A stretch of 64,000 nt of DNA from Methanoregula sp. PtaU1.Bin051 (lineage in GTDB: Archaea; Halobacteriota; Methanomicrobia; Methanomicrobiales; Methanospirillaceae). The position numbers and the translations under genes are program-made. The notes beneath the pieces were generated by a model. It did no database searches. It had not been told where the DNA came from and saw only the letters and a program-made list of their open reading frames with translations. Shown here piece after piece: positions 3 through 7,358 of this stretch (its first letter is position 1; each line of letters opens with the position of its first letter). The stretch is from assembly GCA_002067895.1 (NCBI GenBank), contig MVRE01000013.1:1-64000 (forward strand), written 5' to 3'.

Positions 3-128
3 AGTAAGGAGGCACTGTACCTTAGATCTTTTGGTCACGGTTTTACTTCTGAGAACGTAGCTTTTCTACAGAGCCAAAGGATCTATGATCTTATAATCAT
101 AGAATATATATCGATAATTAAAAGCTAA
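3..128 (+). CDS. C-terminal end of an unidentified protein (cut by window edge)
   Basis: An open frame enters from the left edge and runs 41 codons to a TAA at 126-128. It ends with residues such as LYLRSFGHGFTSENVAFL. It would be convergent with the next gene, overlapping its stop by a few bases. The codon use is AT-rich like the neighbouring accessory genes. No family is recognised and the stretch is short, so a chance frame is possible. Confidence 0.35.
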   Translation, partial: SKEALYLRSFGHGFTSENVAFLQSQRIYDLIIIEYISIIKS

Positions 129-1258
129 AAGCCAAAGTCCGTAAGTGTTCTTGGGTATCTCTTTTTCGTGATATCTTCAACAGCTTTCTTCTCAGCTTCT
201 TCTCTTGCTCTCATAGTGGACCAATTAGTGATAAATTTGTCTTCCAATGATTTTCTCACAGTATTGATATGTTCACCTCTGCAATTCAATTTAAATGATT
301 GGTCATCAAGTGGGACTAATACATCGAATTTCTTCCCATATTGGATTACAGCATCCATCTTATCCTGAACAATTCTTTTCTTTTTTTCTGGGGGCGCCCC
401 AAGAGAGATATTTCTCATTAATGTCGTCATCAAAGTATTGCGATTAATGATTTTAGGATCTGAGTCACCTGCTGCCCGTTGTTTTGCATAGCAATCTCCG
501 ACAACCGCCATTTGCAAAATCCGATAGGGATGAGATGTAGAACAATACGGTAAATCGAATCGACTTTTCTCATCATCCTGTCCAGCACCGGTCAGTAACA
601 TTTCAGTCAATTGCGAATTTTTATGGGTATGATCAGCATGAATCTGAATAATATCTGTCCTCGGATAGTAAATCCATAAAATTGGTTCGTGAGAATCGGA
701 TTTCGGCATTTTTCTAGTCTTTTTACTTAATATACTATCAATGATTTTTTGAGAATCTTTCTCATGAACGCAAAGCACATATTCAATATCACCAATAGTC
801 AGTTGATCGCCAACGCAGTCCGACACAAGATATCGAATTTTTTCTTCAACCAAATCTCTTGCTTCTTGAATATCACTTAGTACTTTCTTAACATCAGAGA
901 CTGATGATTTGCAGCTGATGAAAATCGCATGGTGAGTTGATTCATTGTAGAGTAATAAATCGAAACTTCTGTTACCGGGCTTTTCATTTCCGAACTCAAT
1001 CAAAGGTTCAGCGAAATAAAACTCATAACCTGTTTTTTTTGCAAGCTCGGTGTCAGCAAAAGATTTTGCACACAATCTTACAATTTCCTGATGTTTTCTA
1101 TCCGTATCGATCTCGTTATTGATTCTCTCGATAAAGGCAGGTACGTTGCGTTTCGTCCATTTATCAACAATCTGAGCATATTGTTCCCTTTCTTCAATCG
1201 ATAATTTCTGAATAAAAGGGGTTGTGCTCTCCATGCTTATACCTATGAAATGTCTCAC
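125..1258 (-). CDS. Unknown protein, possible nuclease-like core
   Basis: 377 aa, not recognised. The start is chosen because its ATG overlaps the stop of the upstream gene (ATGA, 4 bp), the usual sign of translational coupling; a second Met at residue 9 is an alternative. Around residues 95-120 there is a strand-turn-strand with a conserved-looking Asp (FDLLLYN) followed by FISCKSS. This resembles the core of PD-(D/E)XK nucleases, but Ser stands in place of the Asp/Glu before x-Lys, so this is only a hint. The C-terminus is lysine/glutamate-rich. Base composition is clearly more AT-rich than the core genes, which suggests acquisition by transfer. It forms a two-gene unit with the gene at 1255-2337. 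Confidence 0.75.
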   Translation of the reverse strand: MRHFIGISMESTTPFIQKLSIEEREQYAQIVDKWTKRNVPAFIERINNEIDTDRKHQEIVRLCAKSFADTELAKKTGYEFYFAEPLIEFGNEKPGNRSFDLLLYNESTHHAIFISCKSSVSDVKKVLSDIQEARDLVEEKIRYLVSDCVGDQLTIGDIEYVLCVHEKDSQKIIDSILSKKTRKMPKSDSHEPILWIYYPRTDIIQIHADHTHKNSQLTEMLLTGAGQDDEKSRFDLPYCSTSHPYRILQMAVVGDCYAKQRAAGDSDPKIINRNTLMTTLMRNISLGAPPEKKKRIVQDKMDAVIQYGKKFDVLVPLDDQSFKLNCRGEHINTVRKSLEDKFITNWSTMRAREEAEKKAVEDITKKRYPRTLTDFGF

Positions 1259-4876: not shown

Positions 4877-4999
4877 ATGCCCGCATACCATGACCCTGCA
4901 GTCGAGACGATGGACCGGGCCGACCTTGACGCCCTGATCGATGAGCGGGTGCGGTACACGGTCCGGTACGCGGACGAGCACTCCCCGTTTTACCGGTGG
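4877..4999 (+). pseudogene. 5' fragment of coenzyme F390 synthetase / PaaK-like gene (N-terminal 41 codons)
   Basis: Codons 1-41 encode the typical N-terminus of the F390-synthetase/phenylacetate-CoA ligase family (ETMDRADLDALIDERV, then HSPFYRW). Directly after the TGG at 4997-4999 the frame changes into unrelated sequence. The natural continuation (WFKENGIDPQS...) is found on the opposite strand starting at 6478. Joining 4877-4999 to the reverse complement of 5234-6475 gives one uninterrupted frame of 454 aa, about the normal family length. The gene was split by an inversion. Confidence 0.88.
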
Positions 5000-5190
5000 C
5001 CCGGCACCTTCCCTCAGCATACCGCCTCATCCGGTCCCTGCGGGGGGGTGATGATACAAATGGCGCGAAGATTGTTGTCGGCGGACGCCTGTTCGGCCTT
5101 GCGCCGGCTCTCTGGAAACAGATCGGCGCCGATGCATGGGCGGCAACAGCGGGAGAGGCAGTTGAAACCGCAGAACGGCTTACGTCCTGA
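5000..5190 (+). pseudogene. 3' fragment of a corrinoid (B12)-binding protein gene
   Basis: In the frame of the GTG at 4996 this encodes ARHLPSAYRLIRSL, then AKIVVGGRLFGL and LWKQIGADAWAATAGEAVE, ending at a TGA. That is the C-terminal half of a cobalamin-binding Rossmann domain (the VxxGG and GADxxA signatures). Its N-terminal partner lies on the minus strand at 6476-7358. Rejoined, the two pieces are exactly in frame (883 + 191 nt = 358 codons with stop). Here the fragment is fused out of context to the F390-synthetase N-terminus. Confidence 0.85.
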
Positions 5191-5233
5191 GGTGTATTTC
5201 TGCCCGGGTTTCTGACCGCATACCGTCAGCTGA

Positions 5234-6475
5234 CTATCTGGCCGGCTGCCGGAGTCGCCTGTCGACCAGCCGTTTCGGCCTGCCTTTCATCCCGGAGATG
5301 CCAAGCCCGCCGGGTCTGACGAAGTTGATCTCGATTACGAACTTCCCGGCGGAGACCTGTTCAGCGAAGTTGTTCCGGTATTTCAGGAACCGCTCAGTGA
5401 ACCGGTCCCTGATGCCTTTTTTATCAATGCTTCCGGGGTCTCTGCATTCGAGGTTCACCTGCATTACGACTTCGCCACCGGTTGCACCGTCCCCGACAAT
5501 TGCCTCGTACTCGCCGGTGAGGGACTCCATGTTCCCGTGCTGGAACACCCCGGCCTCGACATCGACGCGGTTGAACGGGCTCCCAAAGAGCCAGACGGTC
5601 TCGGCCTCACGCTGCGGGTTGATGATCCGCATGTGCGTCCTGCCGCAGCTGCATGTCGAACGCGAAAGGACCGTGGTCGTATCCTCGGTGTCGTAGTTGA
5701 GGAGGAGGGTCCCCGCCTTCGTCCCTTCCTCAAGGAGCGTCGTGAGGACTGCCCGCCCGCATTCCCCGTCGTGGACGAACGCCTTCATCTGCGGATCGTA
5801 GATGTCGAGGTGGACGAGGTCCTCGGGGACGTGGAGCCCGGAAAAGGCCGTGCACTCCCCGCACATCGTCCCTTCCGTGCTCCCGTAGGTGTTGAAGACA
5901 GGGCAGCCCCAGACGTCCGCAAGGTAGGCGCGGGACTCCTCGGCAAAGCTCTCGCCCCCGACGACAAGCCGCCGGATCGATGTCTCTTCCGGCCGGATTC
6001 CCTCCTGTTTCAGCTGCCGGGCAAGCCGGAGGAGCTTGAATACACTCCCCACGATGGACGTCGGGCGGTACGATGAGATGACCCGGGGCGGGAAGGTGCA
6101 TTTGCCGAACGGGATGATCGTCATCTTCAGCCGGCGGGCGGCAAGCGTCATCGTGTTTGCGCCCACGTTCATGCCGTACGATGCGCAGACGATGATACGG
6201 TCTTCCCTCCCGAACCCCTGCGAGACGAAACTCCTCGCGTACTTTTCCGCGTACCGCTTCCAGTCGTCCCATGTCAGGAAGAAACTCTTCGGGGTGCCGC
6301 TCGTGCCGCTTGTCTCCTGGATGGTGAAGATATCCCCCATACCTGCTGACAGGAACTGAAAGTCCGGGGTATTGGGGGGCTGGTGTTCGCGGATCGTGCG
6401 CGAGGAGACGATGGGGAGGGATAGCAGATCCTCGTGGATCCGGATCGATTGCGGGTCGATCCCGTTCTCTTTGAA
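5234..6475 (-). pseudogene. 3' part of coenzyme F390 synthetase / PaaK-like gene
   Basis: 413 codons. The frame is open from WFKENGIDPQS (6478 downward) to a stop at 5234. Adenylate-forming enzyme motifs are intact: TSGTSGTPKSFF (phosphate-binding loop), VVGGESF, FNTYGSTEGTMCGEC, and a cysteine-rich CSCGRTHMRI. The family includes F390 synthetase, which adenylylates coenzyme F420 in methanogens, and phenylacetate-CoA ligase; F390 synthetase-like is preferred from the methanogen context. The first 41 codons are at 4877-4999 on the other strand. An internal ATG at 6340 could start a truncated 368-aa protein lacking the N-terminus. Confidence 0.85.
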
Positions 6476-7358
6476 CCAGCATCGTTACGGAGATGATTAC
6501 GGCATCAGCGTGCCGCTTTCCAGCCATCGCGACAATACTTTCAACAGGAGTGTCGGCACCGGTATGAAGGGCTGACCAGCCCGCCAGCCTGAAGATGTCG
6601 GCAACCATCAGGCTCCCGATGTCATGGGTCTCCCCGGCGATGGAGGCCACGATCGCGGTCTTTCTCGCAATTCCGGCCGCAGCGGAGCCTTCCGGGACCC
6701 GGTCATGCAGCCGGTTGATGATGGCCCTGACCGCACCGGTGACAGCATGTTCCTGGGCGACAGAAATCTTTCCTATCTGCCAGAGTCTTCCGGTCTCGTC
6801 CAGCACCTGGCGGAGCACACGGTCGTACAGGTCCTTAATCATGACACCTTCGTCTGCAGCTTTGATGATAACCGATTCCGCCCCGGCTGAATCTCCGGCA
6901 AGCAGGGCTTCAAGGCACGATCCGGCGAGTGCGGAACAGGGATCGCCCTCACGGATGAAGAAAAGGATCTCTTCCTGCGGTGTGGACAGGGAACCGGTCC
7001 CGGAATCAAGGATCCGCCCGGCCTGTTTTCTAAGGTCGGGGGGGAGTTCCGTTTCCGTCACGTCTTTCAGGACTGCAAGGAGGGATGAAACGTAACCCTT
7101 CCGCCGTCCTGCATGGGTAGAATATACCGCCAGCCAGCCGGCATAATCGGCAAGGAATACAGGGTTTTGCGTTGCGAGGGACTCCTGCAGGCAGGTGATG
7201 AAAGCCCGGAACTCGTCCAGCATGGCCGATTTCTGGTGTGCACTCATGTTCCGGATGCCGGCCCGGTGCCGTTTGCTGAAAAGATCGAGAGCTTTTCCTG
7301 CGAGATATTCGCTGTTGAGGCTTACCGCGTGGTATGCAGGCGCATCCGGTTTTTCCAT
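6476..7358 (-). pseudogene. 5' part of a corrinoid (B12)-binding regulatory protein gene
   Basis: About 294 codons of normal sequence before the inversion junction. Residues 1-125 are an unrecognised helical domain. Residues about 130-230 match the helical cap of B12-binding modules (DEGVMIKDLYDRVLR, then KISVAQEHAVT), followed by the first half of the cobalamin Rossmann domain with THDIGSLMVADIF, a version of DxHxxG. After VIISVTML the reading frame runs out of frame into the F390-synthetase gene and stays open by chance to 5730. The repaired protein would be 357 aa and resemble stand-alone corrinoid/CarH-like sensors. Confidence 0.85.

What the first reader, a model, noticed from the sequence alone, without database searches (positions are those of the whole stretch)
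4877..7358. A single 1,476-bp inversion scrambles two genes and can be undone exactly
The plus strand fuses the first 41 codons of an F390-synthetase-like gene to the last 63 codons plus stop of a corrinoid protein. The minus strand fuses the rest of the corrinoid gene to the rest of the synthetase. Flipping 5000-6475 restores both genes tail to tail, in frame, with full family lengths (454 and 357 aa). The junctions share just TGG. Because no other damage is seen in either gene, the event is recent, a reversible switch or an assembly artefact. If reversible, it would switch two genes at once.
Basis: partly seen in the sequence, partly recalled or inferred. Interest (0 to 1): 0.85.

Follow-up and report, generated by a model that had tools for sequence, protein, structure and literature searches.

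The report
One-off inversion breaking two methanogen genes
In one methanogen genome a 1,479-base piece spanning the ends of two neighbouring genes has been flipped, breaking both; relatives carry the unbroken arrangement and nothing at the ends of the piece looks like a reversible switch, so it is most likely a one-off mutation or an assembly error.

Summary
The inversion is real in this sequence. Four Methanoregula-type genomes, including M. boonei, carry intact ftsA (coenzyme F390 synthetase) and an intact corrinoid-protein gene directly tail to tail; a fifth has about 0.95 kb between them. No other searched genome of the family (108 with this one) matches across the scrambled left join. Flipping 5000-6478 (1,479 bp) fits both families without gaps (455 and 356 aa), so the 'shared TGG' is not clear microhomology. 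Both present joins are out of frame: the genes are broken, not fused. The switch reading fails its tests: no inverted repeat above chance at the breakpoints, no serine recombinase in the genome, no tyrosine recombinase on this contig, no relative flipped. No decay is visible, so the event is recent relative to the species split. Of about 293 gene places tested, this is the only opposite-strand split. Best reading: a single non-homologous inversion inactivating two dispensable genes. A mis-oriented assembly block would look the same and cannot be excluded without reads.

The parts
5000..6478 (.). inverted segment, 1,479 bp (family-consistent breakpoints 4999/5000 and 6478/6479)
4877..4999 (+). 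ftsA codons 1-41 (codon 41 = TGG at position X)
5234..6478 (-). ftsA codons 42-455 and stop, inverted; a 368-aa frame from the internal ATG at 6340 remains
6479..7358 (-). corrinoid gene codons 1-293 and the first base of codon 294
5000..5190 (+). corrinoid gene, rest of codon 294 to codon 356 and stop, inverted
5191..5233 (.). 43-bp intergenic stretch between the two convergent stop codons, carried inside the inverted segment
4877..5215 (+). chimeric 112-aa ORF, out of frame after the join
5730..7358 (-). chimeric 542-aa ORF, out of frame after the join

Best explanation
A single 1,479-bp non-homologous inversion (two double-strand breaks rejoined crosswise, or an equivalent template-switch event) happened in the sequenced lineage after it separated from its known relatives. 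It cut ftsA after codon 41 and the convergent corrinoid gene inside codon 294, and inactivated both because each join is out of frame. Shown: the ancestral tail-to-tail order, the position of the breakpoints, the out-of-frame joins, the absence of repeats and the absence of visible decay. Inferred: the break-and-rejoin mechanism, and that the flipped form exists in living cells. The likely consequence, also inferred, is loss of the enzyme that turns coenzyme F420 into F390 and of a cobalamin-binding protein of unknown role.
For: Intact ftsA(+)/corrinoid(-) tail to tail in L081, L083, L132 and M. boonei L134 (stop-to-stop gaps 1-129 bp), and in L084 with about 0.95 kb between. Flip 5000-6478 leaves no gap column against 52 FtsA and 10 corrinoid sequences, and 22 of 22 corrinoid homologs agree in a separate alignment. 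The best inverted match at the breakpoints is at chance level, P = 0.44. No family genome matches across the left join. Restored FtsA deviates at 1 of 150 otherwise invariant columns, rank 19 of 52. Loss of ftsA is tolerated: several near-complete genomes of the order hold only distant paralogs, and so does this genome apart from the broken gene. Of about 293 gene places tested this is the only opposite-strand split.
Against: No reads, so presence in cells is not shown. Ku was not found, so Ku-dependent end joining is not supported. X41 = W is not seen in about 75 homologs, so either a rare substitution preceded the event or CAC was replaced by TGG during it. A balanced, loss-free join is uncommon for break repair and is also what an in-silico flip would look like.
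Confidence: 0.6

Rival explanations
1. Assembly artefact: a 1,479-bp block was placed in the wrong orientation during scaffolding, gap closing or polishing; the real genome has both genes intact.
For: The genome is a 23-contig draft. The flip is blunt and loss-free under 5000-6478, as a mis-oriented block would be. Both genes look fully maintained.
Against: The breakpoints share no repeat that would confuse a graph assembler and there are no Ns at the joins. About 293 gene places show no second such flip. X41 = W, unseen in homologs, hints at a real change at the join.
Confidence: 0.3
2. Programmed reversible inversion (inverton) that turns two genes on or off together.
For: Both genes are intact after one flip. 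Seven tyrosine recombinase matches exist elsewhere in the genome.
Against: No inverted repeats at the breakpoints. No shared crossover core once the family-consistent flip is used. No integrase hit on contig C13 and no Resolvase-family match. No relative is flipped.
Confidence: 0.06
3. The inverted arrangement is functional as it stands: the corrinoid transcript now runs in sense into the ftsA remnant, which restarts at the internal ATG (6340) to give a 368-aa adenylate-forming enzyme.
For: The 368-aa frame holds the AMP-binding region, which starts near residue 84 of the full protein.
Against: No relative shares the arrangement. The separated 5' and 3' ends show no decay, so there has been little time for a new function. 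The 368-aa frame lacks the first 87 residues or so of the family.
Confidence: 0.04

Closest known systems
Small gene-disrupting inversions by illegitimate recombination (young pseudogenes)
   Same: Single event, no repeats at the breakpoints, genes broken, ancestral order kept in relatives
   Different: Two neighbouring genes are broken at once with no net loss or gain of bases
Invertons and intragenic invertons (site-specific phase variation)
   Same: Short segment inside genes, restorable by one flip
   Different: No flanking inverted repeats (10-40 nt in PMC11892184), no invertase beside it, no second orientation seen
Mis-oriented blocks in draft assemblies
   Same: Blunt, balanced flip
   Different: No Ns or repeats at the joins; the only such case among the places tested in this assembly
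Coenzyme F390 synthetase (NCBIfam TIGR03335)
   Same: Restored protein matches the model over its full length
   Different: Split between two strands in this genome

Membership tests
Inverton (site-specific invertible element) | flanking inverted repeats of about 10-40 nt | tested here: not met
   longest shared inverted word within 40 bases of both breakpoints is 6 bp, off register; local score P = 0.44; no suitable pair
Inverton (site-specific invertible element) | cognate recombinase, often beside the element | tested here: inconclusive
   no Resolvase-family match in the genome; seven tyrosine recombinase matches, none on contig C13; one acting from a distance is not excluded
Inverton (site-specific invertible element) | both orientations present in the population | not testable with these tools
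   no reads; the collection holds one genome per species, and relatives show only the uninverted form
Non-homologous disrupting inversion | derived order, ancestral order in relatives, no homology at the joins | tested here: met
Non-homologous disrupting inversion | joins present in the organism's DNA | not testable with these tools
   needs reads or PCR
Coenzyme F390 synthetase, TIGR03335 | score above 458.7 bits over the full model | tested here: met
Corrinoid / B12-binding protein | B12-binding_2 (PF02607) followed by B12-binding (PF02310) | tested here: met
   both above cut-off in the restored protein
CarH, MtaC, MtbC or MtgC | curated NCBIfam cut-off of the named model | tested here: not met
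   all far below cut-off, best CarH 76 of 400 bits, so no specific function is assigned

The most novel reading that the evidence does not exclude
A repeat-independent but recurrent inversion in a methanogen that switches F390 synthesis and a cobalamin-binding protein off and on together.
Probability: 0.04. Interest if true: 0.8.

Novelty: new member of a known kind. Interest (0 to 1): 0.3.

Why it matters
If real in cells, it is a clean natural double knockout. It removes the enzyme said to convert F420 to a redox-inactive form and so stop methanogenesis from H2 and CO2 (PMC3087415), together with a gene that is its convergent neighbour in several relatives. It would also show rejoining of DNA without repeats in an archaeon in which no Ku was found. 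If it is an artefact, two genes of this draft genome are wrongly recorded as broken.

Tried and rejected
Shared TGG as a crossover core: rejected, because the flip built on it misaligns both protein families by one residue. A seven-base inverted word (CCGGCAC) would have existed at both breakpoints if codon 41 had been CAC as in the closest relatives, but the cut lies on opposite sides of it in the two genes, so simple microhomology exchange does not give the observed joins (own reading). Ku-dependent end joining: no Ku found. Paper searches for archaeal microinversions and intragenic inversions gave nothing useful. The original papers on intragenic invertons were seen only as references in reviews.

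Full report
What is there. The window is the first 64 kb of contig C13 of a 2.31-Mb, 23-contig draft genome. Its named relatives place it in the Methanoregulaceae, near Methanoregula (inference). On the + strand 4877-4999 holds the first 41 codons of ftsA; the remaining 414 codons and the stop lie on the - strand at 6478-5234. The corrinoid gene starts at 7358 on the - strand and runs to 6479; its end, with the stop, lies on + at 5000-5190. Inverting the middle restores both genes.

Proof from relatives. In L081, L083, L132 (a complete Methanoregula chromosome) and L134 (M. boonei, recognised by its genome length from my own knowledge) ftsA and the corrinoid gene stand directly tail to tail, both intact, with 1-129 bp between the stop codons. 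In L084 about 0.95 kb lies between them. A close ftsA is found in one piece in most other relatives; one, G016, is split across contig ends. A search of 108 genomes of the family with the left join found matches in 54 others, each on one side of the join or the other, none across it. The corrinoid gene occurs in 21 other family genomes, with no stop inside. The inverted order is therefore derived and, so far, seen only here.

Exact breakpoints. All of about 75 FtsA sequences have one residue X between the R41-equivalent and the W (FYR-X-WF, with minor variants). Flip 5000-6478 gives FYRWWF and TMPRHLP and leaves no gap in either family. X = W is not seen elsewhere and the nearest relatives mostly have CAC, so the left TGG may instead be a small repair scar. 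Sequence alone cannot decide between these.

Frames and effect. In the present order both joins shift the frame: 123 nt of ftsA are followed by the corrinoid end in another frame, and the 880-nt corrinoid start is followed by ftsA in another frame (and arithmetic). No functional fusion is expected. The genome has no other close ftsA, only a 27% paralog on C17, and several near-complete genomes of the order also have only distant paralogs, so loss is tolerated.

Age. Restored FtsA departs from otherwise invariant columns once in 150 (rank 19 of 52 sequences) and the corrinoid protein 4 times in 36 (rank 3 of 10), with no internal stops. The event is recent compared with the split from the nearest relatives, which are about 75% identical in ftsA DNA. 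It cannot be dated more finely.

Switch or not. Around the breakpoints the best inverted match is at chance level (P = 0.44) and the longest shared inverted word is 6 bp, off register. Invertons are described as regions flanked by inverted repeats of 10-40 nt and flipped by an invertase (PMC11892184). The genome has no Resolvase-family match, and its seven tyrosine recombinase matches are on other contigs. The switch reading is therefore unlikely, though only reads can exclude it.

Artefact or not. With reference proteins from a congener and other relatives, about 293 gene places in 1.96 Mb of this genome could be tested, and only this locus is split on opposite strands. Frameshift-like splits are few, 3 of 256. 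The joins hold no Ns or repeats. Against this, a blunt, loss-free flip is exactly what a mis-oriented block would give. I leave about 30% for an artefact; reads would settle it.

Verdict. Most likely this is an isolated non-homologous inversion that broke two dispensable genes, otherwise an assembly error.

Noticed in passing
window 128-1258 and 1258-2337, - strand: Two adjacent genes of 377 and 360 aa near the contig end with no match in Pfam or PADLOC.
   Followed up: partly
L081, L083, L084, L132, L134: ftsA and a 355-360 aa corrinoid protein gene are convergent neighbours in several Methanoregula-type genomes, which hints at a functional link between F390 synthesis and a cobalamin-binding protein; the other held genomes of the window's own genus lack the corrinoid gene.
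   Followed up: partly
G000:C3:53137-54344, G000:C6:105523-106448, G000:C3:181051-181681: Three genes with frameshift-like splits against the congener G004, possibly sequencing errors or young pseudogenes.
   Followed up: no
window 6479-7358 (-) with 5000-5190 (+): The restored corrinoid protein matches CarH, MtgC and MtbC models only far below their cut-offs and has an N-terminal region of about 145 aa without a Pfam match.
   Followed up: no
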